DNA of 39,848 bases from a virus. A program made the translations under genes and the position numbers. Location of the stretch: IMG/VR virus record IMGVR_UViG_3300022213_000017, positions 1 through 39,848 of that record, one strand, 5' to 3'. Of the stretch, positions 6,897-23,630 are shown piece after piece (the stretch's first letter is position 1; every line of letters begins with the position of its first letter). The notes under the pieces were generated by a model. The model did not search any database, was not told the origin of the DNA, and saw only the letters and a program-made list of their open reading frames with translations.

Positions 6897-7609
6897 GCCG
6901 CCACGCCCCAATGCTCCCGCACCCACGCTAACCGCTGCGCGCGCCAGTCCCACGGGTCGACCTTGCCGTGGAACATCACGATCCGACAATTGGCCGGCAG
7001 CGTATCCGTGCCCTGCGGTTCGAGATGCACGCGGAACGAATAGACACCGTCGTCTCGCCCCCACCGGGCCTCTCCAGGGCCGAGGCAGTAACTGATCCAG
7101 CCCTGGTCCGAGCCGAACCGCCCCGCCCGTTTGGCGAGCATGGGCGAGGTTTTCGGGTTGAACTCCGTCCAGACCTTCGCGCGCGCGCCGGCCGTCAGGA
7201 GAAACATCGAGCCGTTATAGAAGCTGTTGGGGTTTGTCTCGCCCCAGATGACGAAGTCCTCGGGCCGGTCGAAAATCGGCCGCACGTCCCCGACGATGAC
7301 GGTGTCGAGGTCGAGCGACAGGAACCGCGGCCCGAGCAGGGACGCAATCGCCGGGTCGAAGAGTTTCAGCCGCCGATAGCACGAGGGATTCCCGCGGCCG
7401 TGTGGACTCGGCACCGTCGCATGGTCCGACCAGAGCGGCAGCGTCTCGACGTCCTTTAACCCTTTGGCGTCGTCCGTGATGCACACGAACCGATGCGGCG
7501 CCGGATAGTGCCGCGCGACCATATCGCGCAAGGCAATCACCGCTTCCGGTCGGAAGGCAGACCGATACCCCGGCGGGGGTTGCCACTTGAACGTCACGAT
7601 GGTCAGCAC
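6893..7609 (-). CDS. GT8-like glycosyltransferase, paralogue of 4335-5000
   Basis: This protein of about 238 residues is a second GT-A glycosyltransferase. It opens LTIVTFKWQPPPGYRS, continues RFVCITDDAKGLKDV and carries FLSLDLDTVIVGDV, with the DLD metal-binding motif. SFYNGSMFLLTAGARA and GSDQGWISYCLG match the region seen in the paralogue. Two starts are possible, GTG at 7618 and GTG at 7609; the second has GGAG eight bases upstream and is preferred. It overlaps the upstream gene by seven bases. Confidence 0.8.
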   Translation of the reverse strand: MLTIVTFKWQPPPGYRSAFRPEAVIALRDMVARHYPAPHRFVCITDDAKGLKDVETLPLWSDHATVPSPHGRGNPSCYRRLKLFDPAIASLLGPRFLSLDLDTVIVGDVRPIFDRPEDFVIWGETNPNSFYNGSMFLLTAGARAKVWTEFNPKTSPMLAKRAGRFGSDQGWISYCLGPGEARWGRDDGVYSFRVHLEPQGTDTLPANCRIVMFHGKVDPWDWRAQRLAWVREHWGVAA

Positions 7610-8235
7610 GCGACGCACTCCGGCACCGCGACCAGCGTCGCGCGCAAGTCCGCACAGGGAAACGCCGTCAGCACCGTGCGGCGCGTGCAGTTGATGACCG
7701 CGATGTGCTTCTTCTGGAGCGGCTTGACGAGCGTCAGGAATTGCCGGCGGAACTGGTCATACGGCGACTGCTGTTTGTTCGGATGCTCGCCGAAGAAATG
7801 CGCCTGCCCCCCGCTCGGCTGCATGTCATAGCCGAGCAAGATGATGCGGGCGGCGCCGTAGTGCACGGCGAGATTGACCGCCTGATAGCCCGAGTTCCGC
7901 CCGTTCTTCAGCCCGGTCGGGTCATGCTCGAGGCCGGATGGGCCGGTGTTCCGGAGCCGCTGCACGTCGGGATACTTCTGCGCCTGACCGACCCACGCGG
8001 AATGGTCGAGCGACCACTTCGGGCCGGTGAACGACGGCACGCCCTCGTGCCAGCGCCACCATTTGACGTCGCAGGCGTAGAGGGCATCCGCCCACGGCGC
8101 GAGCCGATAGGCGTCATTCACCACAATGACGCGGGCCTTGCCGCGGCAATAGTCGACATCCGCCGCCGTGAGGCTCGGCCCGGTGGCGACACAGACCACC
8201 GTCTCGCCCGGCCAGAGGCGCGGCACACTCACCAT
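7603..8235 (-). CDS. DUF115/Maf-like putative glycosyltransferase
   Basis: This 210-residue protein begins with a nucleotide-binding-like segment VVCVATGPSLTAADVDYCRG and then VIVVNDAYRLAPWADALYAC, followed by DVKWWRWH. GYQAVNLAVHYGAARIILLG follows later. This pattern is familiar from phage and bacterial proteins related to the DUF115 or motility accessory factor group, some of which transfer nonulosonic acids. The exact family is an inference. It overlaps the collagen-like gene by seven bases and opens the glycan cassette, so it probably acts in the same pathway. Confidence 0.6.
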   Translation of the reverse strand: MVSVPRLWPGETVVCVATGPSLTAADVDYCRGKARVIVVNDAYRLAPWADALYACDVKWWRWHEGVPSFTGPKWSLDHSAWVGQAQKYPDVQRLRNTGPSGLEHDPTGLKNGRNSGYQAVNLAVHYGAARIILLGYDMQPSGGQAHFFGEHPNKQQSPYDQFRRQFLTLVKPLQKKHIAVINCTRRTVLTAFPCADLRATLVAVPECVAC

Positions 8236-8840
8236 CGATCCGGCCCTCGGTCGCCCTTATCGCCCTTTTGCCCCGGTTTACCTTCCGGCCCGGCCGGGCC
8301 TGGCTTCCCGTCGCGCCCTGCCTTGACGCACAGCTGCCAGCCGGTCTTCCCGTCGCCCGGCCGGTCGGTCGTCGAGTCCCGCGCAATCCAGAGCGAGCCG
8401 CTCCACGTCACCAGGTCGCCAGGCCCGTAGGCGTCTGCCGCCGACCACACGCCTTTATAGGACGGCGACCACCACGGCAGCGCCAGCGAACGATCGCCGA
8501 CCCACAGCGTGATCGTCTTCTCGCCGTCGAACTCCATGCGCGTAATGTCGGCCGCGGTCAGCATGAGTCCGTCCTTTCCGTCCAGGCCCTTCTCGCCGGC
8601 TGGCCCCTGCGCCCCGTCCCGACCGTCACTCCCGTCGCGGCCGTTGGCCCCGTCCGCCCCCTTCTCGCCGGCTGGCCCCTGCGGCCCCTGCGCCCCGTCG
8701 CGGCCGTCTCGGCCGGGCACGGGTGCCCGCTGCTCGAGGATGGCAATCCGCGCCAGGAGCGGCTCGACCGCCGCGGCGACCACGGCGCGCATCACGGGCG
8801 CCAGGCCGCGCGAGATGAGCGCGAGTTCGGTATCAGTCAT
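8229..8840 (-). CDS. Collagen-like repeat protein with carbohydrate-binding-like segment
   Basis: This 203-residue protein has two blocks of Gly-X-Y repeats, at about residues 43-91 (GRDGRDGAQGPQGPAGEKG and onward) and 172-200. An N-terminal helix of about 35 residues could trimerise. Between the collagen blocks lies a folded segment with WWSPSYKGVW, then YGPGDLVTWSGSLWIARDST, which resembles short CBM5/12-type carbohydrate-binding modules. Such proteins usually form trimeric fibres on the virion. The gene lies between the portal and the glycan cassette, overlapping the portal by eight bases, so a capsid or neck fibre is likely, perhaps itself the glycan acceptor. Confidence 0.75.
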   Translation of the reverse strand: MTDTELALISRGLAPVMRAVVAAAVEPLLARIAILEQRAPVPGRDGRDGAQGPQGPAGEKGADGANGRDGSDGRDGAQGPAGEKGLDGKDGLMLTAADITRMEFDGEKTITLWVGDRSLALPWWSPSYKGVWSAADAYGPGDLVTWSGSLWIARDSTTDRPGDGKTGWQLCVKAGRDGKPGPAGPEGKPGQKGDKGDRGPDRW

Positions 8841-10221
8841 GGAGCACCATCACGTCACGCAGCAGCATCGCCACGAATCGCCGCTCCTGCGCGGCCTCGT
8901 CCTCGTCGGGCTCGTCGTCGTCGGGCGCGTCGACCACCGACCGGGCCGCCCCGGCGGTGGCGAACGGATCGGCCTTCGCATCGCGCTTGGCGAGGGCTTC
9001 GAGCGAGAAATTCTGTTGCTGCAAATACGGACTCTCGCCCCCGGTCACCGGGCCGAGGTCGAAGAACCGGCGCCGGGCTTCGTTCGGGGACATGCCGCCG
9101 GCCAACGCCTCGCGTGCCGCGGTCGAGCGCGTCGCCGAATCCATCCGCAGCAACGAATCGAGATCGAACTCCGTGCCGACGCGCGGGCGCGTCTGCCGGT
9201 CGAGCCCCAGCCCCTCGTCGAGCAACACTTCAATCGACTCGATGTGCGTCTGCAGGCACTGCGAGTAGTACTGCTGGTTCAGGGCTTCGATGTTGTTGTA
9301 GGCCGGCGCGGGCGCCACGCCCACCATATAGGGCGGCACATGGTAGGCCGTGCAGACGTTCTCGGCGGTCCAGCGCAGTTGCTCGATCAGTTGCGAGTCG
9401 ACCGCATTCATGCCCATGTCCTGATATTTCAGGTCGGCCCCGAGCACGGCGATGCGGCCCTGGTTGTCGCCGCTGAAATTGTCTTCCCAGGCCCGCTTGA
9501 TGTCCCGCTGCTGGTCGTCGCTCAGCATCACGGGCGACGTGAGAATGCCGCCCGGCCGCGAGCCGTTCGCAAAGAACGCGCTCGAGTTGTTCTGCACGCG
9601 CAAGCCCTGCACCGCGGCTAGGCCGCACGCCGTGAGCGGCGAGACCCCGCAGAGCGGGTGATAGAGCGCCACCATCACGTCATGGATGATTTCCGACGCC
9701 GGCACGACGACTTGCGAGCCGTCGATGCGCGACAGATTGTCCTGACTCAGCGCGTAGTAGACGTCCCCGTTCGGCGCCACGAGCGGCTTGACGCGCGTCG
9801 CGTCGAGCACATAGAGCCCGGTCACCACTTGCCGCTCGTCGCGGACTTTCAGGACGTAGGTATTGCCGTGAATGAGCTTCGAGGCGAGCCACTGTTCGAT
9901 GAACTTGATGCGCGTCTGGTAGTGATTCGGCTTGCGCAGCACCGGCGACCAGGCCGCGCTCTCGGTTTCCTGCCAGATGCCGTCCGCATCCTGCCGGACG
10001 AGTTTGATGCGTAGTTTCGCGATATCGGACGCAATGAGGGTGACGCAGGCGTAGACGGCGGCAAACGTCAGCACCGTGTCGGGCGTCTGCTCGATGCCGC
10101 GCTGCCAGGCTCCCGAGAACGGTTCGAGAATGCGATACCAGCCGCCGCTTGATGGCGTGGTGTAGGACGTCCCCGGCGGCGCCGCTTTCGTGCGCGTGAT
10201 GGTCAGGCCGAAGAGCGTCAC
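8833..10221 (-). CDS. Portal protein (HK97 family)
   Basis: This 462-residue protein is the portal, the dodecameric ring through which DNA enters and leaves the capsid. Family marks are the N-terminal VLTFAAVYACVTLIASDIAK, KPNHYQTRIKFIEQWLASKL and LIHGNTYVLKVRD, VPASEIIHDVM, HPLCGVSPLTACGLAAVQG, then NGSRPGGILTSP and the stem/crown segment ending VAPAPAYNNIEALNQQYYS. The C-terminus is acidic (DDDEPDEDEAAQ). A GTG start at 10221 overlaps the upstream stop (GTGA). Length is normal for the family. Confidence 0.93.
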   Translation of the reverse strand: MTLFGLTITRTKAAPPGTSYTTPSSGGWYRILEPFSGAWQRGIEQTPDTVLTFAAVYACVTLIASDIAKLRIKLVRQDADGIWQETESAAWSPVLRKPNHYQTRIKFIEQWLASKLIHGNTYVLKVRDERQVVTGLYVLDATRVKPLVAPNGDVYYALSQDNLSRIDGSQVVVPASEIIHDVMVALYHPLCGVSPLTACGLAAVQGLRVQNNSSAFFANGSRPGGILTSPVMLSDDQQRDIKRAWEDNFSGDNQGRIAVLGADLKYQDMGMNAVDSQLIEQLRWTAENVCTAYHVPPYMVGVAPAPAYNNIEALNQQYYSQCLQTHIESIEVLLDEGLGLDRQTRPRVGTEFDLDSLLRMDSATRSTAAREALAGGMSPNEARRRFFDLGPVTGGESPYLQQQNFSLEALAKRDAKADPFATAGAARSVVDAPDDDEPDEDEAAQERRFVAMLLRDVMVLHD

Positions 10222-10519: not shown

Positions 10520-12466
10520 CTAGCTCGGGCTGCCGACCGAGCCCCAGTTGACGTCGTCCATGTAGGCGACGGCACTGGTCCGGAGCTTCGCCCAGTTGAT
10601 CCACCGCTCCGCGCGGATGGCGATCGAGTTCGTCTGGAACATCGACACCATCGTCGTCGCCGTGGCACTCGACGAGTTGTTCGTCGGGTTGTCGAGCATC
10701 TGGAGCGAGGCTTCGCGCGAGATGTCGACGGCCACCTGCCCGTCGTCCGCCAACGCGATGTCGTTGGCTTTCGCGACGATGACCATGTTCCCGTAGCCCG
10801 ACTGATTCGCCGCATACTGCGACGCGATAACCGGGATGCCTTCGAGCGTGCCGCCGGTGACGGTCATGCCCGGGAACTCCTGCTGCCCGAGGCTGTTGCG
10901 CATGATGCTGAGCGCCAGCGCCAGCGTGTTCGGCATGATCAGCACGAGCCCGGACGGGTTGACGTTCGCCAGGATGAACTGCTCGAGCAGATTCATCAGG
11001 TCCGTCCGCGCGTTGTCCGCCGACGTGCCCGCCGAACTCAGCGCCGTCACACCGTTCGTGATCGAAGCCGGCGACACGTTCGCCGAGGACGCCTTGGCCG
11101 GGTCAACGAAGTCCGTGTCGATGCGCTCGACCACGGCGCCCGCGAGCGCCTCACGGACGAGGGCCTCGGCCGACGGCGACGAGAACCGCGCGAGTTCCTC
11201 GGTGATCACCGCGATAGCCGCGACCTTCGCGTAGGTCAACGTCTGCGCGTTGAAGCCGAAGCTGGTCAACGGCTTCGGCGCGCCCTGCCCGACCCAGTAG
11301 CCATCGCCGCCGCTCGTCTGGCCGGTGATGCGCACGTTGAAGGGCACGCGCTTGAGACCCGGCATCTTGCCGATGATGGTCATCGGCCGCAGGAACTCGA
11401 CGAACTCGCTCGTCAGGTTCGTCGGGTCCACGAGCGGCGACGCCCATGTCGTCTCGGTCGTCGTGCCCCCGGGCACCGCCGCGCGCAGATGCACATGCAG
11501 GCGGTCATCGCCCGGATACCGATGCTTCGCGATGTCGGCGGCCGAGACGTAGTTCCCTTTGTGCAGTTCGAGGAACGCGGCCATCTTGCACATCACGGCG
11601 CGCGCGAGCCCGATGCCCGGCGGCAGGGTTTCGCGGACGGTGATGATGCCCGAGCGGCTCTCGGAGGCCGCGGCCTGCGAGGTGCCGGTCACCGGCACGG
11701 CGGCGGCCTTGTTCATCTGCTCGACGGTGTCGAGGCGCGCCAGGTGGCTGTCGATGGCCTTGATTTCGTCGGTCAGCGTATCGAACTCGGCCTGCTTCTC
11801 GGGCGCGAGCGTGGAGCCGTCATCGGCGCCCAGCAGGTCGTTGAGCTTCGCGACTTTCGCGGTCTTCTCGGCCGCGAATGCGGCCTTGCGTTCGGCAATG
11901 GGTTTCATAGCATCGGCGCCCTTTCGCGCCAGTGTGACAACGCGGCCCGTAACGCCGGGCGTCCCCTCGTGCAATAAGCCCTGACCCGTGCCGAGCGCGG
12001 CGAGGTCTTGGGCGGCAATGGACTTGATCGTGGCAATAGTGGCCCCTCCGTTCGCGGGAATCGTGACGGCCGACAGCTCGAGCCATTCCCATCGCAGGAA
12101 CCGCTGGCCGAACGTGCCGTCAATCTGCGCGGTCTCGACGGCGCGGAAGCCGATCGACAGCCCGCGGACGAGCCCTGCGCGGATGAGCGTCCAGGCCTCG
12201 TCGATGCGCGCGAGCACCCCGGCGGGCGCAATCTGCGCGCGGATTTCGATACCGGCCTTCGTGACTGTGGCGGCGATGACGTGCCCGATCGGTTGATCGG
12301 CGCGGTGCTGCCAGAGCAGCGGAATCGGGAGTTTGAAGGCCGCGCCGGCGGGCTCGACGATATCGCCCATGCGGTCGGTCTCGGGCGTGCTGGCGAGGCC
12401 CTCGATGATGCGGGCGGACTCGTCAGCGGATTTGATGGTGAAGAGACTGACGGCGCGCGTGAGCAT
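10520..12466 (-). CDS. Prohead protease fused to HK97-type major capsid protein
   Basis: This 648-residue protein joins three parts. Residues 1-165 are a U35-type prohead protease with His54 in LWQHRADQPIGHVI, Ser104 in RGLSIGFRAV and Glu130 in WLELSAVTIPAN. Residues about 190-260 form a charged coiled coil, as in a scaffold or delta domain. Residues about 280-648 are the HK97-fold major capsid protein, with GKMPGLKRVPFNVRI, the GAPKPLTSFGFNAQTLTY strand region, ITEELARFSSPSAEALVRE (spine helix) and FPGMTVTGGTLEGIPVI. The protease would cleave the scaffold and free the capsid subunit during maturation. The ATG at 12466 has only a weak GTGAG site, and a terminator-like hairpin lies upstream, so a separate promoter is expected but not obvious. 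Confidence 0.9.
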   Translation of the reverse strand: MLTRAVSLFTIKSADESARIIEGLASTPETDRMGDIVEPAGAAFKLPIPLLWQHRADQPIGHVIAATVTKAGIEIRAQIAPAGVLARIDEAWTLIRAGLVRGLSIGFRAVETAQIDGTFGQRFLRWEWLELSAVTIPANGGATIATIKSIAAQDLAALGTGQGLLHEGTPGVTGRVVTLARKGADAMKPIAERKAAFAAEKTAKVAKLNDLLGADDGSTLAPEKQAEFDTLTDEIKAIDSHLARLDTVEQMNKAAAVPVTGTSQAAASESRSGIITVRETLPPGIGLARAVMCKMAAFLELHKGNYVSAADIAKHRYPGDDRLHVHLRAAVPGGTTTETTWASPLVDPTNLTSEFVEFLRPMTIIGKMPGLKRVPFNVRITGQTSGGDGYWVGQGAPKPLTSFGFNAQTLTYAKVAAIAVITEELARFSSPSAEALVREALAGAVVERIDTDFVDPAKASSANVSPASITNGVTALSSAGTSADNARTDLMNLLEQFILANVNPSGLVLIMPNTLALALSIMRNSLGQQEFPGMTVTGGTLEGIPVIASQYAANQSGYGNMVIVAKANDIALADDGQVAVDISREASLQMLDNPTNNSSSATATTMVSMFQTNSIAIRAERWINWAKLRTSAVAYMDDVNWGSVGSPS

Positions 12467-12519: not shown

Positions 12520-12556
12520 AAAAACGACACGCGGCAGAGCGTTGCACTCTGCCGCG
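12520..12556 (-). terminator. Probable intrinsic terminator after the pentamer array
   Basis: A perfect 10-bp stem (12547-12556 with 12530-12539) encloses a seven-base loop. On the minus strand it is followed, five bases later, by five T residues at 12524-12520. It lies between the pentamer array and the capsid gene and would end transcripts coming through the array. The short gap before the T-run makes it less than ideal. Confidence 0.5.
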
Positions 12557-12572
12557 CGATGGAACATTACCT

Positions 12573-13098
12573 GCCAAGCGTCGCCATGCCCGTCCACGAG
12601 TCGCCCAGCCCGGCCCCGCCTCGTCTGCCGCGCCACGCCCTGCCTCGCCCTGCCGCGCCAATCCACGCCGTGCCACGTCTGCCTTGCCGGGCCTGACCGA
12701 GCCGGGCCTTACCGAGCCGCGCCATGCCTCGTCTGCCGTGCCGTGTCCGTCCACGCCTTGCCCTACCTAGGCGGCCGCGCCAAGCCACGCCCAGCCCGGC
12801 CACGCCTCGCCGAGCCTCGCCCGGCCTAGCCCTTCCTCGTCTGCCATGCCCTGCCCCGCCGCGCCGGTCCGTGCCATACCCGGTCTGCCGCGCCAAGCCC
12901 GGCCTCGCCGCGCCGTGCCCCGCCGCGCCTCGTCTGCCGTGCCCAGCCACGCCCGGCCGCGCCATGCCTTGCCGCGTCTGCCGCGCCGTGCCAGTCCTTG
13001 CCCCGCCGTGCCCGGCCGGTCCTGACCTCGCCACGCCACTCCGAGCCCCGCCTGACCGTGCCGCGCCATGCCTTACCGCGTCTGCCGTGCCGTGACCT
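12573..13098 (-). repeat. Degenerate pentamer array (NNGGC)n punctuated by AGAC
   Basis: About 525 bases are built of five-base units that read GCCNN on the plus strand (NNGGC on the transcribed minus strand), with the last two bases of the unit nearly free. The five-base register is shifted by the exact tetramer GTCT (AGAC on the minus strand) at 12623, 12677, 12731, 12839, 12883, 12932, 12976 and 13080. Between successive tetramers lie 10, 10, 20, 8, 9, 8 and 20 units; the first 20-unit block is split by a variant tetramer GGCG. Frames across it are open on both strands only because stop codons are rare in this composition. It starts right after the stop of the gene at 13105 and ends before a terminator-like hairpin. 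Confidence 0.9.
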
Positions 13099-13104
13099 TC
13101 CGCC

Positions 13105-13569
13105 TTACGCCGCCGCCGAGCGCAGCGACCGCGTCAGGCCCGTAATCCGCTCGACGAGCCCGTCAATCTCCGGCGCCAGCCCGAGCGGTTGCGCCAAGTC
13201 ATACGCGCGCCGAAGGTGGCCCGAGGCCACCTCCAGCGTGTAGATGAGCACTTCGCGCGACGCCGCCGGGTCGAGCCCGATGCGGTCGACCCGCTGATAG
13301 CCGGACTCCTGCACGGACAAATCCCGGACGTAACAGGGCGTCTTGATGACGCGCTCCTCAGTCGTGACTTGCACCGTCACCGACCCGATGATTTCCCGCG
13401 CGCGTTGCAGCCAGTAACGCTCGGCGGCCCGCTGCACGTTCCAATCGAAGAGCGCATGCAGCGGACTCGTCTTGTGCTTGGCGGCCTTGATCAGCCGGCG
13501 AGGAGAAATCCGACCGTCTGAATCTTCCAGCGCCAAGACCGCGAAATTCTGCGCAGTCGTCAGCTTCAC
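13105..13569 (-). CDS. Uncharacterised partner protein of the array operon
   Basis: This 154-residue protein has no family I recognise. It begins KLTTAQNFAVLALEDSDGRI, a helix that looks like the start of a small helical or wHTH-like domain, followed by basic segments (RRLIKAAKHKTSPLHALFDW). A strand-rich middle (VTVQVTTEERVIKTPCYVRD) and a helical C-terminus (LEVASGHLRRAYDLAQPLG) follow. The start is GTG at 13569, overlapping the RAMP-like gene's stop as GTGA, so the two are translationally coupled. It ends seven bases before the pentamer array, the third part of the unit. A nucleic-acid role is likely from charge and context only. Confidence 0.8.
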   Translation of the reverse strand: MKLTTAQNFAVLALEDSDGRISPRRLIKAAKHKTSPLHALFDWNVQRAAERYWLQRAREIIGSVTVQVTTEERVIKTPCYVRDLSVQESGYQRVDRIGLDPAASREVLIYTLEVASGHLRRAYDLAQPLGLAPEIDGLVERITGLTRSLRSAAA

Positions 13570-14348
13570 GACGCCACCCCCCGCAGTTGCCGGCGCGAGA
13601 GCTCCACGCTATACCAGTCCAGCAGTTCTCTCGTCTGGTCGTCATACGCGACGGGCTGCGCCATCGCGTGTTCCTGCTGCTCGCGCCCGCCCTCGCGCAC
13701 GATGCGCAGGAAATCCGCGTCGTCCGCGTCGACGATCCGGAACTGCCCGAACCGCCCCGAGCCCTTCTGCTGCCGCCAGTCCCCGATCCCCATCGTGATG
13801 CCGGCGGCCGCGAGCAGATTGACCACGGCCTGATGACGGATGAGCGGCTGCACGAACGTGATGTTCACGACGCACGCCCACTCCGGCAAGAGCGCCCGCG
13901 TCCGGATGTCCGGCGTGCGGTTCATGTCGGCGGAACGCACTGGCGTCATGAACAATTTCGGCACCCCGTAGATGCCGACGTAGTGACGGTCGACCCACGT
14001 CAGCCGCCCGACGACGGCCTTCTTCGCCCCCGGCATGTCGAGCGCCGACGTCGAAATCGCGTTTTTGAACGCGGTCGAGAGCACCGCGAGCAGCGTCGGT
14101 TCCGACGAGTCAGACAGCGTATAGGGCGACGCGCGATATTCCGCCACCGGGTCGTGCTTCAGCGTCGTCGCCTTTTCGACGCTGCCCTTCTTGCCCCGAG
14201 GAAGCACCAGTTCGCGCCACACCTTTTCGGAGATGCGGTTCATGATGAGCGGCGAATCTCCGACGATGTGGCACTTCACCGTGCCCGTCGTGACCGTGAG
14301 AATGTCGGAGATTTCAGTGGAAGTTGTCTTAGACTTGGCAGCAGCCAT
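13566..14348 (-). CDS. RAMP-like (Cas7/Cas5-type fold) phage protein of unknown function
   Basis: This 260-residue protein has an N-terminal strand and loop (VKCHIVGDSPLIMNRISEK, about residues 24-42), a basic stretch (LVLPRGKKGSVEK), a helix LLAVLSTAFKNAISTSALD, and near the C-terminus MGIGDWRQQKGSGRFGQFRI at residues 186-205. The last part fits the glycine-rich loop GhG-x(5,6)-GxG of RAMP proteins, which bind RNA in CRISPR effector complexes. The RAMP reading is an inference from this loop and the overall layout. The ATG at 14348 has AGGAGG nine bases upstream inside a small hairpin loop. It is the first gene behind a strong promoter and is coupled to the downstream gene. Confidence 0.8.
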   Translation of the reverse strand: MAAAKSKTTSTEISDILTVTTGTVKCHIVGDSPLIMNRISEKVWRELVLPRGKKGSVEKATTLKHDPVAEYRASPYTLSDSSEPTLLAVLSTAFKNAISTSALDMPGAKKAVVGRLTWVDRHYVGIYGVPKLFMTPVRSADMNRTPDIRTRALLPEWACVVNITFVQPLIRHQAVVNLLAAAGITMGIGDWRQQKGSGRFGQFRIVDADDADFLRIVREGGREQQEHAMAQPVAYDDQTRELLDWYSVELSRRQLRGVAS

Positions 14349-14482: not shown

Positions 14483-14665
14483 CTATTTGTTCGAGGGCGT
14501 CGAGGCCCGCACCGACAACACCCGCCGCACGAGCGCCGAGATGGACACGCCGCGCTGCCGCGCGAGCGCCGCGAGATGGTCGTGCTGGCGGGCGGGCACC
14601 CAGATACTCACGCTCGACCCAGGCTCCGAGGCCTTCGGCCGACCGCGCGGGCGTTTCTCACTCAT
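14483..14665 (-). CDS. Small ribbon-helix-helix DNA-binding protein
   Basis: This 60-residue protein opens with a basic RPRGRPK stretch like an AT-hook, then SSVSIWVPARQHDHLAALAR, a short strand followed by a helix, and ISALVRRVLSVRA as the second helix. This is the pattern of Arc/CopG-type repressors, which bind operators as dimers through the strand. It overlaps the terminase stop (ATGA), and its end lies four bases from the -35 of the next promoter, so it may regulate that promoter or its own operon. Confidence 0.8.
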   Translation of the reverse strand: MSEKRPRGRPKASEPGSSVSIWVPARQHDHLAALARQRGVSISALVRRVLSVRASTPSNK

Positions 14666-16326
14666 GAGCGTCCCCCCATGAAAAAGACTTGCACTTGCGG
14701 CGCCTTCGTGTCGAGTTGCGTCAAGGCGTTCAGCGTCGCCTGCACCCCGTCAATCCGGCCCCGCGACTTCTTCTTCGAGGGTAAGACGTTCGACTTGTCG
14801 TCATACCGCGGCACGACGTTGCCGACCATCAGCCCCATCAGCGGATTATGGTCATGCCGCACGCGCCGCTGCAAAATCGTCGCCTGGAAGTCTTTCATGT
14901 GCCGGCTGATCGGGTCGAACATCTGCCGCACGGGAATAACCTTCACGCCGTCCTGGTCCTGCAGCGCCTGCACGAGCTCCTGCGCGTGCCACGGGTCGTA
15001 ACAGACCGCCCGCGCCTTCCACTCTTTCGCCAGCACCGCGACGCGCTTGCGGATGACGGCCCGGTCGATGACGTTCCCCTCGGTCGTCTCCAGCCAGCCC
15101 TGCTGCCGAAACAGCCCATACGGCACGCGGTCGCGCCGGCCGCGTTCCTCGAGGTTGTCCGCCGGCAGCCAGAAGTGCGGCCGCACGGCGATCTCGCCCC
15201 CGTCCACCTTCCACACGAGCACCGCCGCCGTCACGTCAATCGACGACGACAGGTCGAGCCCGATCCAGCACGGCGCCCGCCGCAGTTCGGCCTCGTCGGG
15301 TAGCGGCGGGCACGCCTGCCAGTCTGCCACCGAATAGTAACTGTCGACCGTCTGAATCTTCTGCCCGAGGTAGAGCCGGCGGACTTTCGCAATCTCGGCG
15401 GGATTCGCGCACGCCTTCTCGACTTCCGAGCGGAGAAACTCGGGCTTCACCGAGACCCCGAAGTTGGGATTCGCCTTCCGCCAGGTCGCAGCCAGCGTCC
15501 AGTCGTCCTCCGGGTCGGCCGCCGCGATGAACGCGAACCACTGGTCGAGCGGCACGGTCTGGTCGAGCACGCGCGTGCTCAGGAGATGATGCTGCCCGTA
15601 GACGGACTGGTCGTCATCGCCCGCGGTCGTAATCTCGAACAGGAGCGGCTGCCGGCGCGTGCCCATGCCGGACTCCATGACGTCGATGAGGTCGGAGGAG
15701 GGGATCTTGTGTACCTCGTCGACCACGACGATGTGCGGCCGCAAGCCGTCGAGGGTGTCGGCGTCCGCCCCGAGGCCCTCCATCTTGGACTCGGTCGCCT
15801 CCGAATGGATGTTGTATTTGCCGATCGTGACGTGCTGCTTCAGGGCCTTCGAGCGCAGGAGCATCTGTCGGCCGGCCTGGAACGAGATGCGCGCCTGGTC
15901 GCGTTTCGTGGCGACCGAGTAGGCTTCGGCGCCGCCTTCGCCGTCGAAGAACGCGAACAGCACCAGCATCCCGCCGGCAATCGTGCTCTTGCCCTGTCCC
16001 CGCGGAAGCTCGATGAAGGCGTTCCGGAATCGTCGTAAGCCCGTCTCGCGGTCGACCCAGCCCATCACCGAGCCGACGACGAACTGCTGCCACGGCTCCA
16101 ACCGAATCGGCTGCCCTGCCCACTCCCCCTTGAAATGCCGACACAACGCGAAGATGCCGAATGCCTTGGCCGCCAACTCCGGCCGGTAGACCCAGCGCGA
16201 CCCGTCCGCGCTCTCGGTCAGATCCCGCAGATGGCGGTCACAGGCGAGCCGATGCCACTTGCCGGCCGGAATGTCCCCGTCTGACACACGCCGGGCGTAA
16301 ACCGTAACCGGCTCACCGGACCGCAA
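14662..16326 (-). CDS. terL: Terminase large subunit
   Basis: This protein of about 554 residues is the packaging motor: an ATPase plus a nuclease that cuts the concatemer. Walker A is LPRGQGKS near residue 108, Walker B is HIVVVDEVHK with the acidic pair near 203, and EITTAGDDDQSVYG follows as the coupling region. The nuclease part begins with WIGLDLSSSIDVTAAVLV, whose first Asp near residue 358 is catalytic. The start is uncertain: TTG at 16326 keeps the conserved VTVYARRV-DGDIPAGKWHR part, while a GTG at 16287 would lose some of it. It overlaps the small subunit stop by 14 bases. Confidence 0.95.
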   Translation of the reverse strand: MRSGEPVTVYARRVSDGDIPAGKWHRLACDRHLRDLTESADGSRWVYRPELAAKAFGIFALCRHFKGEWAGQPIRLEPWQQFVVGSVMGWVDRETGLRRFRNAFIELPRGQGKSTIAGGMLVLFAFFDGEGGAEAYSVATKRDQARISFQAGRQMLLRSKALKQHVTIGKYNIHSEATESKMEGLGADADTLDGLRPHIVVVDEVHKIPSSDLIDVMESGMGTRRQPLLFEITTAGDDDQSVYGQHHLLSTRVLDQTVPLDQWFAFIAAADPEDDWTLAATWRKANPNFGVSVKPEFLRSEVEKACANPAEIAKVRRLYLGQKIQTVDSYYSVADWQACPPLPDEAELRRAPCWIGLDLSSSIDVTAAVLVWKVDGGEIAVRPHFWLPADNLEERGRRDRVPYGLFRQQGWLETTEGNVIDRAVIRKRVAVLAKEWKARAVCYDPWHAQELVQALQDQDGVKVIPVRQMFDPISRHMKDFQATILQRRVRHDHNPLMGLMVGNVVPRYDDKSNVLPSKKKSRGRIDGVQATLNALTQLDTKAPQVQVFFMGGRS

Positions 16327-16837
16327 GGAGTTGCGCAAGCGTCTGCTCGTCCGTGTCAGCCACCGTCGAGCCGGCCGGCAGTTTGCCATCAGCCGCCAGC
16401 CCATACCGCGCCTGCAGCGTCTCAATGCGCGCCATCAGACTACGCCACTGCGTGATAAGCGAGTTCGCCTTGTATTCGGTATGCTCCTGCCCCGACCCGT
16501 CAATCGTGACGCGCGCCTGCTCGTACCCGCGCGCCTCGATGCACGCCCGCAAGGACGCCGCGAACGCCGCCTGCTGGCACAGCAACACGAACCCGGGCAA
16601 CGTCCCCGCGTGCAACAGCCCGCGGCCCATCGCCAGCCCGGCCCAGGCGTGCCAGTATTCGAGTTCAGCCGGCGTCAGGATGCTCGGGGGGTCCAGGGCC
16701 TCAGCCGGCACCTCCGCCGGCACCCGCTCCGGCGTCACCAGCGTCAACGGCCGCTTGCCCGCATTGCCCCCCAGCCAGCGTGCCTTCTGCGTCTTCGGTT
16801 TCCGGCCCGCGCCGACGCGTTTTCCACCCCAGGTCAT
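16313..16837 (-). CDS. terS: Terminase small subunit (P27 family)
   Basis: This 174-residue protein recognises the packaging start on viral DNA and hands it to the large subunit. It starts MTWGGKRVGAGRKPKTQKAR, a basic arm common in P27-type small terminases, then WLGGNAGKRPL, and the helical LTPAELEYWHAWAGLAMGRG region. LITQWRSLMARIETLQARYG near the C-terminus is the oligomerisation-type helix. Size and position before the large subunit are typical. The ATG at 16837 has only a weak ribosome site. Confidence 0.88.
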   Translation of the reverse strand: MTWGGKRVGAGRKPKTQKARWLGGNAGKRPLTLVTPERVPAEVPAEALDPPSILTPAELEYWHAWAGLAMGRGLLHAGTLPGFVLLCQQAAFAASLRACIEARGYEQARVTIDGSGQEHTEYKANSLITQWRSLMARIETLQARYGLAADGKLPAGSTVADTDEQTLAQLLAVR

Positions 16838-20707: not shown

Positions 20708-21112
20708 GGCGTCCGTCCTTCCAGTGACCGTCGGTCTCGCGCAAGACACTTCTCGGCCGGCGGCAGCGCAGGCGTGATCGGCGCGTGGTCCGGCACTCGT
20801 ATGCCGCCGCCGGATCGTGAACCCGTGCGGATACCGCGCGGCCAGTTTGTCGATGTTCAGCCGCGCGATGTCGTCGAGGTTGAGGCCGAAGTGGGACGCC
20901 AAGTCGGCCAGATACCACAGCACGTCCCCGAGTTCCTCCGCCAGTTTCTCGCGGTCGAGCTCGAGCCCATGCCACGCCTGTTTCTTCAGCAGGTCGGCCA
21001 CTTCGCCTGCTTCCCCACAGAGCCCGAGCCCTTGCACGAGCGGGCGTTCGCGGTTATCAAACGGCGCGGCCGAGGTCCGGAGCGCGGCCTGCTGATAGTC
21101 GTGGAGGGTCAT
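20354..21112 (-). CDS. MazG-like NTP pyrophosphohydrolase, reading on into a second domain
   Basis: The first 100 residues are MazG-like: LGLCGEAGEVADLLKK carries the EAGE metal-binding motif, and EKLAEELGDVLWYLADLASH carries ELGD. Such enzymes hydrolyse non-standard or alarmone nucleotides. Family members usually end near HGFT, but here the frame stays open through a poorly protein-like linker into a second protein that has its own start at 20707. This may be a true fusion or a lost stop. A +1 frame through the linker ends with TGA overlapping that internal start. The ATG at 21112 overlaps the upstream stop. Confidence 0.75.
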   Translation of the reverse strand: MTLHDYQQAALRTSAAPFDNRERPLVQGLGLCGEAGEVADLLKKQAWHGLELDREKLAEELGDVLWYLADLASHFGLNLDDIARLNIDKLAARYPHGFTIRRRHTSAGPRADHACAAAGREVSCARPTVTGRTDAMTQPSLLDLPAARPTKRGAVPTSSRLTYQAEHARLEKRADLVRSWLRQHAERQPPPTSAELSRWVFGDDEAPVSDALYVRRGLSDLQAAGVAEHVPGGDRRCRQSGRLCVTWRLRTR

Positions 21113-23388
21113 ACGGTCGTCTCCTCGTAGGCCTCCATCAGGCCGAGCAGCGTGCCCGCACGCGCGAGCCTTTCCGCTTCCGTGAGCACAGAGACGGCCG
21201 TCTTCCAGTAGCTTTCTTTCAGTTCGCAGCCGACATACCGGCGGCCGAGCGCGAGCGCTTGCCGGCCCGTCGAGCCGATGCCGTTGAACGGGTCGCATAC
21301 GAGATCCCCAGGCGCCGACCACAATTTGATCGCGCGCTCGATGACGCCGAGTTGGAGCGGGCACAAGTGCCGCTCGTCATCGGTCTCGCGCGCCTGCGCC
21401 ACGTTGAGCACGTCGGTCTCGCGAATCCCGCCAGGATAATGCTTCGTCTGCCGATACCAGACCGGCGCCGCCCACTCGATCCATTCGGCCTCGGTGATCC
21501 AGCCGGCGCCCGCGTTATACCTTGGCGACATGCCCGCCCGGATGGGCTGCGGATTATCGCCGGGCTTCCGAAAGTAGAGCAGGTAATCCGCGAGGGCCAT
21601 CCGCATCATCGCGGAATCGGTCGCCAGCGACTTGAACAGCAGCCCGCGTTCCTTGTTCCGCGTCGCCTGAATCTGCGGATTCTTGTCGATCGTCACTTCT
21701 CCGGCATACGGCCACCCGTGCCGCGCGAAGAGGTCGATGACGGCGCCGCGGTAGTCCTTGAGGCCAATCCAGCCTTCCCGCGATTTCATCGCCGTCAGTT
21801 GCACGAGATGGACGCAGCACATCCGGCCTGGCATTGTGATCCGCAAGAGCTCCGGCACGAGATACGCGAAGTGGTCGATCATCTCCTGAATTCCGTCCGT
21901 GTTCCCGATGTCGAGCGCCGAGTTCGTGTAGGCATACATGCCAGGAAACGGCGGGCTCGTCACGGTAAGACCGACGGACGCATCCTCCACCTCGCGCAAG
22001 CGCTGCACACTATCCCCGAGATACAGCGTCCACGTGTTCCCGCGCGCCACGTCCTCTCGATACGTCATCTCAGTCCTCTCTGCCTTGCCGAGACTCAGCC
22101 CGGCCGTATGCGCCACGATGGACGCGAACATCTCATCCGCCTGTAGTTCCTTCCGGCGAATGTTGGCGACGACCGCCCCTTCGCTCTCGGCCGTCACCAC
22201 GTGCACGTCGACGGGCGACTGTTGCCCGAACCGCCAGCAGCGGCGCGTCGCCTGATAGATCTGCTCGTAACTATCCGACAGGCCCACGAACGCCATGTGA
22301 GAGCAGTGTTGCCAGTTCAGCCCGAAGCCGGCGATGGTCGGCTTGCTGATGATGACCCGCGACTCCCCGCGCGAAAAGCCGAGCAGCCGTGTTTCTTTCG
22401 TCTCTGGCGCATCAGAGCCCGTCACTTCGACCGCGCCGGGAATCGCCTTCAGCAGCGCTTCGCTTTCCCGATTCAGGTGACACCACACAACCCACGTGTC
22501 AGGACTCGCATTGACGAGATCGGCCGCGGCCTTCACGCGATCGGCGAGACTAGAACGCCGCGCCTGTTGCCGCTCCTGCATCGTTTGCGCCTCGCCGGCG
22601 AAGAGATAGCCCTCCAAAGGCGCCGAGTCGACGATGTGGTGATGATGCCTGAGAGGCGGTAGGACGAACCCGTCATCGCTGAATCCGAGGTCCGACGGGC
22701 GGCGCACCGCGACCGACCAGAGCGCCATCCACCGCCAGAAGTCAGGCGCGGCGTGCCCTTTCAGGCGCCACGCATGGGTCGTGTTCCCATCAGTCGTGAA
22801 AAAGAGCGCGATGATCTCTTTCCCCGTCATGATGTCGAGGAACTCGGCGTGGTTCGTGAGTTCGATGAGGTCGTTCGGTGCGGGCGTCGCTGTGCACGCC
22901 AGACGATACTGGATAGCGGCGCCGAACGCCGTGATGGCCTTTCGTGTTACGCCCCCGAAGCCCTTAAGGATGCTGGACTCGTCGAGCACGAGCCCTGAGA
23001 AGTCCGGCCGGAAGTGCTCGAGCATTTCGTAATTGGTGATGTTCACGCCCGACCGTACATCCGCCATCGTGCGGCAGATTGTCACCGGCACGCCGAACTT
23101 GGCGCCCTCGCGCGCCGTCTGCGCCGCCACCGCCAGCGGCGCCAGGATGAGCACGTCTCCGCCTGTCTGTCGGTGCACATGCGCCGCCCACTCCAGTTGC
23201 ATCGGCGTCTTCCCGAGACCGCAGTCCGCGAAGATCGCCGCCCGGCCGCGGTGTAACGCCCAGCGCACGATCGCCCGCTGAAACGGGAAGAGCTGCGGAT
23301 TAATGAGTCCGTCGTCGACTTCGAAGCCTTGCGGCTCGACCATCAATCGCTTCGAGGCGATGAACTCCTCGTAAGGGCGTCGCGTCAT
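21109..23388 (-). CDS. SNF2-type helicase fused to a DNA methyltransferase
   Basis: This 759-residue protein has two halves. The first is a superfamily 2 helicase: Walker A in FADCGLGKTPMQLEWA near residue 57, LVLDESSIL as motif II, LACTATPAPNDLIEL as motif III, and IAGFGLNWQHCSHMAFVGL then YQATRRCWRFGQ as motifs V-VI. The second is an N4-cytosine or N6-adenine methyltransferase with TSPPFPGMYA near residue 477 and the AdoMet loop CDPFNGIGSTGRQALALG near 698. This motif order (catalytic motif first) is the beta class. It probably modifies viral DNA against restriction. The ATG at 23388 overlaps the upstream stop. Confidence 0.9.
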   Translation of the reverse strand: MTRRPYEEFIASKRLMVEPQGFEVDDGLINPQLFPFQRAIVRWALHRGRAAIFADCGLGKTPMQLEWAAHVHRQTGGDVLILAPLAVAAQTAREGAKFGVPVTICRTMADVRSGVNITNYEMLEHFRPDFSGLVLDESSILKGFGGVTRKAITAFGAAIQYRLACTATPAPNDLIELTNHAEFLDIMTGKEIIALFFTTDGNTTHAWRLKGHAAPDFWRWMALWSVAVRRPSDLGFSDDGFVLPPLRHHHHIVDSAPLEGYLFAGEAQTMQERQQARRSSLADRVKAAADLVNASPDTWVVWCHLNRESEALLKAIPGAVEVTGSDAPETKETRLLGFSRGESRVIISKPTIAGFGLNWQHCSHMAFVGLSDSYEQIYQATRRCWRFGQQSPVDVHVVTAESEGAVVANIRRKELQADEMFASIVAHTAGLSLGKAERTEMTYREDVARGNTWTLYLGDSVQRLREVEDASVGLTVTSPPFPGMYAYTNSALDIGNTDGIQEMIDHFAYLVPELLRITMPGRMCCVHLVQLTAMKSREGWIGLKDYRGAVIDLFARHGWPYAGEVTIDKNPQIQATRNKERGLLFKSLATDSAMMRMALADYLLYFRKPGDNPQPIRAGMSPRYNAGAGWITEAEWIEWAAPVWYRQTKHYPGGIRETDVLNVAQARETDDERHLCPLQLGVIERAIKLWSAPGDLVCDPFNGIGSTGRQALALGRRYVGCELKESYWKTAVSVLTEAERLARAGTLLGLMEAYEETTV

Positions 23389-23630
23389 GCTGTCGGGTAA
23401 CATATCACACCCCGCCTCCGGAGCAAGAGTCGTCGATTCAGCAGCGCGTCAATCGCGTCCGCCGAGAGGTCATCCGCGACCGGCCGCTGACCCACCGGCA
23501 GATGCCGCAGCGCTTTATCCCGATGCACCCGCGCACAGCGGACCGAGGGCGACCACCGGCACCGCCGGCAGCGGCGCGACTCATCCTCGCATGGGCGCCC
23601 ACATCCACACCGGCACACGCACGTCAGCAT
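23385..23630 (-). CDS. Small Cys-rich zinc-binding-like protein
   Basis: This 81-residue protein opens with CVCRCGCGRPCEDESRRCRR, a dense cysteine set that fits a zinc ribbon, and then has ADDLSADAIDALLNRRLLLR, a short helix rich in Leu and Arg. Its layout (CRCGCG, then Cys-x2-Cys, then a Leu/Arg helix) matches the neighbouring gene at 23630-23863, so the two are paralogues. It starts at an ATG overlapping the upstream stop (TGATG). Function unknown; a DNA- or RNA-binding adaptor is plausible. Confidence 0.75.
   Translation of the reverse strand: MLTCVCRCGCGRPCEDESRRCRRCRWSPSVRCARVHRDKALRHLPVGQRPVADDLSADAIDALLNRRLLLRRRGVICYPTA

What the first reader, a model, noticed from the sequence alone, without database searches (positions are those of the whole stretch)
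12573..13098. Regularly punctuated pentamer array (NNGGC)n with AGAC spacers
About 525 bases follow a five-base unit with the last two positions almost unconstrained, so it is not a simple microsatellite. The register is broken by an exact tetramer (AGAC on the transcribed strand) eight times, with 10, 10, 20, 8, 9, 8 and 20 units between tetramers, and once by a variant. Because the tetramer shifts the frame each time, no long protein is encoded in a consistent way; the array is probably used as RNA or as DNA. The variable dinucleotides could carry information, form stacked GG pairs, or serve as binding sites for a protein that covers five bases per subunit.
Basis: partly seen in the sequence, partly recalled or inferred. 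Interest (0 to 1): 0.92.

Follow-up and report, generated by a model that had tools for sequence, protein, structure and literature searches.

The report
Phage guide-RNA array with gapped code
The pentamer array is a bank of phage guide RNAs (a VIPR system, first described in a 2026 preprint) that sits beside its CRISPR-like RNA-binding protein; in relatives of this phage such guides spell out, two letters per codon, conserved packaging and capsid-protease genes of rival phages.

Summary
The array is real: (GGCNN)n on the minus strand at 12571-13101. It starts 4 nt after the stop codon of a two-gene operon and ends 12 nt before a terminator hairpin. It is a vrRNA array of a VIPR system (PMC13142463).

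The 260-aa neighbour is the Vipr protein. Its profile hits solved SUSP1 Vipr (E 1.2e-5), and its model matches Cas7/Csm3 RAMP proteins (Z about 10). The 154-aa neighbour fills the Vap position.

In 111 non-redundant loci, all 86 with an uninterrupted vipr gene have an array and all 23 without vipr have none. Of 131 arrays, 130 lie on vipr's strand.

The 'spacer tetramer' is a one-base-short unit (GGCA, then GNC). It recurs every 9-14 units and marks guide boundaries. Decoded by the published rule (NN pairs, one target base skipped), relatives' guides hit terminase and prohead-protease genes of related phages in codon frame, more often than shuffles and other skips. Over 6,583 NNs, composition matches codon positions 1-2 of the coding strand.

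Targets of the window's own guides were not found, and expression is untested. Verdict: a new member of a known, very recent kind. The array layout may be a variant; the preprint's supplement could not be read.

The parts
12571..13101 (-). vrRNA guide array, (GGC/GGY NN)n, about 108 units, read on the minus strand
   Evidence: same-strand arrays beside vipr in 86 loci
12983..13082 (-). guide segment 1, 20 units (perhaps two guides with a lost boundary): GC AA AT GC AC CA GG TC GT GT GA CA CC CG AC GG AA CT AC GC
12939..12978 (-). guide segment 2, 8 units; shares its first four dinucleotides with segment 1
12890..12934 (-). guide segment 3, 9 units
12846..12885 (-). guide segment 4, 8 units
12738..12841 (-). 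guide segment 5, 13 + 7 units with a variant break GGCC at 12773-12776
12684..12733 (-). guide segment 6, 10 units: GA AT GC TC AA CC TC CA CC AA
12630..12679 (-). guide segment 7, 10 units: GT AC GT TT GC AG GA AG GT GC
12571..12625 (-). guide segment 8, 11 units (3' end of the array, more degenerate)
12623..12629 (-). example of the boundary heptamer GGCAGAC (one-base-short unit GGCA followed by GAC); 8 exact copies in the array
   Evidence: conserved as GGCAGNC in relatives
12528..12558 (-). intrinsic terminator directly after the array (14-pair stem, then TCGTTTTT)
   Evidence: similar hairpins with T runs after arrays of L009, L015, L020 and L021, seen in the sequence
13105..13569 (-). 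vap-position gene, 154 aa (phrog_15946; SPLHxxFxWD family); winged-HTH-like N half plus helical hairpin in the AF2 model; DNA-binding role inferred
13566..14348 (-). vipr gene, 260 aa (phrog_4652), RAMP / Cas7-like protein with glycine-rich loop GIGDWRxxKGxGxFG
12050..12091 (-). site in this phage's own protease-capsid gene (peptide WEWLELSAVTIPAN) that matches a guide of relative L065/L013 at 25 of 28 bases; one of the 28 guide bases was filled in at a one-base gap, so 24 of 27 without it

Best explanation
This is a VIPR (Viral Interference Programmable Repeat) locus. The array is transcribed on the minus strand and ends at the terminator at 12528-12558. The RNA is used as guides (vrRNAs) of about 8-14 GGY-NN units, whose ends are set by the one-base-short boundary unit GGCA(GNC). 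Copies of the Vipr protein (13566-14348) line up on the RNA, one per five bases, holding GGY and presenting NN. Each NN pairs with two target bases and one target base is skipped; in genes this skipped base is the codon wobble position. In this clade the guides appear to be copied from the coding strand of conserved late genes (large terminase, prohead protease) of related rival phages. Binding would repress those genes, with the 154-aa Vap-position protein assisting on DNA. Shown here: array anatomy, conservation, linkage and strand; RAMP fold (model) and sequence homology to solved Vipr; boundary role of the short unit; the one-base-skip code for the clade. Taken from the paper: protein-RNA assembly, dsDNA binding and repression. 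Inferred: transcription here, one protein copy per unit, targets of the window's own guides, role of the 154-aa protein.
For: (1) The profile of the 260-aa family hits PDB 36pp_D 'SUSP1 Vipr protein', E 1.2e-5; hhalign to SUSP1 Vipr 95%, E 2.4e-8. (2) The AF2 model (pLDDT 84.8) matches Csm3/Cas7 chains: Foldseek's top hits are all RAMPs and VIA-align Z is 10.2, rmsd 3.0, 147 residues. (3) vipr, vap and array go together in 85 loci, none in 23, 1 has no detected vap, and 2 lack an array because the contig ends inside vipr. 130 of 131 arrays are on vipr's strand, usually within 0-20 nt of the vap stop. (4) 545 boundary units with spacing peaking at 9-14 units; the paper gives 9-16 repeats per vrRNA. 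(5) Target matches begin at the first unit after a boundary, and two end at the next boundary. (6) Unique guides matching at 19/22 or better: skip 1, 11; skips 0, 2, 3: 3, 6, 4; shuffled skip 1, mean 3.95, range 1-8. At 20/22 or better: 2 against 0 in 20 shuffles. 19 of 23 hits have the skipped base at the wobble position (2-5 per shuffle). (7) NN composition fits sense codon positions 1-2 (r 0.75) and no other phase (r at most 0.29). (8) The same parser finds tracts at four places in the SUSP1 VIPR locus, one upstream and three downstream of the genes, as the paper reports.
Against: No target was found for the window's own guides, either in 1.4 Mb of related loci or by four pattern scans of 2.9 million viral contigs (one search gave two matches that do not extend). 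The strong guide-target cases in relatives come from about four independent guides. The 154-aa protein is not detectably related to SUSP1 Vap1. There is no structured 3' tail of the type II kind. No RNA-seq or binding data exist for this phage.
Confidence: 0.93

Rival explanations
1. Protein-binding or decoy RNA: the array is a sponge or attenuator bound every five bases by an oligomeric protein (as TRAP binds NNGAG repeats), and the NN positions carry no information.
For: Five-base period with two free bases; an adjacent RNA-binding-type gene; a terminator after the array.
Against: NN composition fits codon positions 1-2 of the coding strand, and guides match related phages in codon frame more often than order-shuffled guides. 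The neighbour has a RAMP fold.
Confidence: 0.03
2. VIPR, but used for self-regulation: the guides tune the phage's own late genes and do not attack rivals. (This is a variant of the best explanation, not an alternative to VIPR.)
For: Hits fall in terminase and protease genes, which these phages also have; the array lies between terminase and capsid genes. Guide L015 matches its own gene as well as others (22/30).
Against: The guides of L066, L039 and L065 match relatives better than their own locus as held (24 against 17 of 26; 21 against 17 of 24; 25 against 21 of 28).
Confidence: 0.12
3. Neutral expansion: satellite-like DNA generated by slippage, with no function.
For: Partial internal duplication, e.g. 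a 93-base period at 12835-13018.
Against: Strict linkage with vipr in many phage groups while NN stays variable, conserved strand, boundary spacing and codon-like NN composition.
Confidence: 0.01
4. A repetitive protein is encoded across the array.
For: Long ORFs cross it (for example 12567-13034 minus, 155 aa); UmaThurman's record annotates gene 40 there.
Against: (GGCNN)n has few stop codons by composition, so long ORFs arise passively; the boundary units shift the frame repeatedly; no frame is conserved.
Confidence: 0.01

Closest known systems
VIPR systems (Vipr + vrRNA), PMC13142463; best studied in Escherichia phage SUSP1 (type II)
   Same: Phage-encoded RAMP protein, a small second gene in the vap position, flanking GGY/NN repeat RNA, guide length 9-16 units, one-base-skip code with the wobble base skipped.
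   Different: SUSP1 has four separate vrRNAs, each with a structured 3' tail (paper; tracts seen). Here guides are joined head to tail in one array, divided only by a one-base-short unit. The 154-aa gene is not detectably related to Vap1. Targets found in the clade are late structural and packaging genes of related phages, where the paper reports satellites and lysogeny regulators.
Class 1 CRISPR-Cas RAMP proteins (Cas7/Csm3)
   Same: Fold of the Vipr protein, glycine-rich loop, filament on a guide RNA with periodic pairing (fold; filament: from the paper and general knowledge).
   Different: No long repeats with spacers and no cas genes seen beside it; the guide is read two bases in five.
TRAP / NNGAG repeat RNA
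   Same: Five-base RNA repeat with two unconstrained bases.
   Different: Different triplet, no target code; analogy only, from general knowledge.

Membership tests
VIPR system | RAMP-fold Vipr protein with RRM core and glycine-rich loop | tested here: met
   PDB 36pp SUSP1 Vipr hit E 1.2e-5, hhalign 95%, Csm3/Cas7 fold Z 10.2, GIGDWRxxKG motif
VIPR system | vrRNA of alternating GGY/NN units, 9-16 units per guide | tested here: met
   window runs of 8-20 units between boundaries
VIPR system | Minimal phage locus of vipr plus one vap gene with flanking ncRNA | tested here: met
   the second gene is called vap by position, its role is inferred
VIPR system | Targets follow the one-base-skip rule, skip at the codon wobble base | tested here: met
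   met for the clade
VIPR system | Targets of the window's own guides | tested here: inconclusive
   none found
VIPR system | vrRNA expressed and bound by Vipr; dsDNA binding and repression | not testable with these tools
   needs RNA-seq and biochemistry
VIPR type II (SUSP1-like) | Separate vrRNAs, each with an invariant structured 3' tail | tested here: not met
   continuous array, units joined through GGCA with no tails between guides
VIPR type II (SUSP1-like) | Vap1 accessory protein | tested here: inconclusive
   hhalign finds no relation, but one side was a single sequence; a similar winged-HTH plus helices layout cannot be excluded
VIPR 'staggered arrays with overlapping vrRNAs' | Array layout of fig. 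S18 of the preprint | not testable with these tools
VIPR hammerhead-interspersed arrays | Hammerhead ribozymes between vrRNAs | tested here: not met
   no Rfam ribozyme at gathering score in the window or in 12 related loci
CRISPR-Cas | Long repeats with contiguous spacers beside cas genes | tested here: not met
   five-base units only; neither neighbouring gene matches a Pfam or PADLOC family

The most novel reading that the evidence does not exclude
The continuous array is a CRISPR-like compact bank in which a single one-base-short unit (GGCAGNC) is both the separator and the only handle of each guide, and whose guides are systematically written from the coding strand of terminase and prohead-protease genes of related phages. 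This would be a layout and target logic different from the SUSP1 and P. fulva systems that were tested.
Probability: 0.35. Interest if true: 0.75.

Novelty: new member of a known kind. Interest (0 to 1): 0.6.

Why it matters
It gives independent sequence evidence, in phages outside the two systems tested in the preprint, for a guide code that skips bases. It also shows that guide boundaries can be read directly from sequence as one-base-short units, so guides can be parsed and decoded at scale. The guides look like two letters per codon of rival phages' conserved late genes, a readable record of phage-phage conflict. The same approach applies to well-studied mycobacteriophages (cluster F, e.g. 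Saal) and Gordonia phages, where the arrays are unannotated or mis-annotated and can be tested in the laboratory.

Tried and rejected
DNA-bending by helical phasing: breaks of -1 base move the average unit below 5 bases, away from half a B-DNA turn. Protein coding: no conserved frame. TRAP-like ring binding: considered before the fold was known, dropped. Hammerhead or other Rfam RNAs: none in the array. Rfam, Pfam, NCBIfam and PADLOC gave no name for either protein or the array; a weak near_KaiC_dom hit (E 0.0021, far below cut-off) was ignored. The fold of the 154-aa protein had no convincing PDB match (VIA-align best Z 7.3 on the helical hairpin only). Amino-acid-level target search for the window's guides: no convincing signal above shuffles. 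Pattern scans for window guides: 0, 0, 0 and 2 matches that do not extend. A first, smaller skip test on 236 kb was near chance. First literature searches by repeat description found nothing; the Vipr name from the PDB hit led to the paper. The genome search in the Paraburkholderia family needed a G handle and was not pursued.

Full report
WHAT IS THERE. The window is a phage contig (G000 is a virus record). On the minus strand the order is: small terminase-like 16313-16837, large terminase 14662-16425, a 260-aa gene 13566-14348, a 154-aa gene 13105-13569, the array 12571-13101, a terminator hairpin with a T run at 12528-12558, then a fused protease-capsid gene 10520-12466 and the portal 8833-10221. 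The array starts 4 nt after the stop of the 154-aa gene. Read on the minus strand it is GGC-NN repeated about 108 times, with GGC sometimes GGT, GGA, GAC or GTC.

CONSERVATION. Using the 260-aa protein as query, 21 loci were fetched from viral contigs. Nearly all carry a five-base-period array, in most starting right after the 154-aa homologue. With more loci and duplicates removed, 111 loci (1.42 Mb) gave: 85 with vipr, vap and array; 23 with none of the three; 1 with vipr and array but no detected vap; 2 with vipr only, both cut by the contig end. Capsid relatives without vipr have no array: only L039 of the capsid-fetched loci kept after duplicate removal has the module, and it has all of it. 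130 of 131 arrays are on the vipr strand, most beginning within 20 nt of the vap stop; 16 loci also have an array upstream of vipr. Named phages with the same module are Gordonia UmaThurman and ODay, cluster F1 mycobacteriophages such as Saal and Gorge, and cyanophage Cy-LDV1 for the vap-like gene with arrays on both sides. In UmaThurman the array is annotated as gene 40.

IDENTITY. An alignment of 18 homologues shows a conserved glycine-rich motif (GIGDWRxxKGxGxFG). Its profile hits PDB 36pp_D, 'SUSP1 Vipr protein', E 1.2e-5. This led to PMC13142463, which describes VIPR: a RAMP protein (Vipr), usually one accessory gene (vap), and vrRNAs of 9-16 YNNGG units that bind double-stranded DNA, the NN pairing and one target base being skipped, mostly at the codon wobble position. 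The AF2 model of the 260-aa protein (pLDDT 84.8) matches Cas7/Csm3 chains only at the top (Foldseek 2.8e-5; VIA-align Z 10.2, rmsd 3.0, 147 residues). As a positive control, the same array parser run on the SUSP1 locus finds one tract upstream and three downstream of its two genes, as the paper reports. SUSP1 Vipr aligns to the family at 95% probability; SUSP1 Vap1 does not align to the 154-aa family.

THE TETRAMER. In 545 unique boundary units from the clade, the short unit is GGC-A in nearly all (the set was selected for NGCA; over all one-base-short units GGCA is also by far the commonest, 590 copies against 98 for the next), followed by GGC (62%), GGT, GTC or GAC. The distance between successive boundaries peaks at 10-12 units, with most between 9 and 14. 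This equals the published guide length. In four guides with good targets the match begins at the first unit after a boundary, and in two it ends exactly at the next. So the tetramer delimits guides. Whether it is also a processing site or handle is inferred. Guides are not separated by structured tails as in SUSP1; whether this is the 'staggered' layout of the preprint's fig. S18 could not be checked.

THE CODE. Eleven-unit stretches of all guides were compared with the array-masked loci on both strands (2.86 Mb searched) under skips 0-3. Raw hits at 19 of 22 or better: 5, 24, 6 and 5. Counted by unique guide: 3, 11, 6 and 4, against a mean of 3.95 (range 1-8) for order-shuffled guides at skip 1; at 20 of 22 or better, 2 against none in 20 shuffles. 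19 of 23 skip-1 hits put the skipped base at the wobble position in sense orientation (2-5 per shuffle, either orientation); several of these are one guide hitting several relatives. Best pairs: L066 guide on the prohead-protease-like gene of L014, 24/26 (EALDVRALVDHDT); L039 guide on the terminase C-terminus of L019, 21/24 (NKIDGIDAILQA); L065 (=L013) guide on the protease-capsid genes of several relatives including this window (12050-12091), 25/28 (WEWLELSAVTIPAN), against 21/28 in its own locus; in this last count the one guide base lost at the GACC gap was filled in, so it is 24/27 without it. L015 guide matches the next stretch of the same protease gene, 22/30, equally in its own locus. 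These strong cases rest on about four independent guides. As a test that needs no target, the 6,583 NN dinucleotides of unique guides fit codon positions 1-2 of the coding strand (KL 0.057, r 0.75) and none of the five other phases (r -0.27 to 0.29) nor genomic dinucleotides (r 0.14). For the window's 96 NNs alone, codon positions 1-2 (either strand) fit best.

WHAT IS NOT SHOWN. No target for the window's own guides was found. Transcription, RNA binding and repression are not tested in this phage. The 154-aa protein has a confident model (pLDDT 90.2) with no PDB match; a DNA-binding role is inferred from its winged-helix-like N half and from its position.

VERDICT. The system is a member of VIPR, first posted in April 2026. 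Added here, as far as the preprint's main text shows, are the boundary unit, the codon-position signature and the late-gene targets in this clade. The host is unknown; the nearest cellular hits are a betaproteobacterial MAG and Paraburkholderia.

Noticed in passing
window 21109-23403 (-): One ORF joins a SNF2/helicase-like region to an N6/N4 DNA methyltransferase domain.
   Followed up: no
window 7603-8235 (-): ORF matching phrog_4603, annotated alpha-2,3-sialyltransferase (E 5.9e-48), next to a collagen-repeat gene at 8229-8840.
   Followed up: no
window 10520-12466 (-): Prohead protease (S78) and major capsid domains are fused in one 648-aa ORF.
   Followed up: partly
L030 5628-5951 (Gordonia phage UmaThurman): Annotated gene 40 is the pentamer array read as protein; probably a mis-annotation.
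   Followed up: yes
L026 8332-9797: Very long guide array (about 296 units) with two further arrays in the same locus.
   Followed up: partly
L140 731-955 (Parvarchaeota contig): 45 GGY/NN units without any boundary unit beside a distant vipr relative.
   Followed up: no
L032 4200-5417 (Mycobacterium phage Gorge gp54): The ORF annotated as one gene covers a vipr-like part in a broken frame and the vap-like protein; in phage Saal these are two genes.
   Followed up: partly
window 12939-13082: Two neighbouring guides share their first four dinucleotides (GC AA AT GC), and TRF finds a 93-base period at 12835-13018, suggesting guides arise by duplication and divergence.
   Followed up: no
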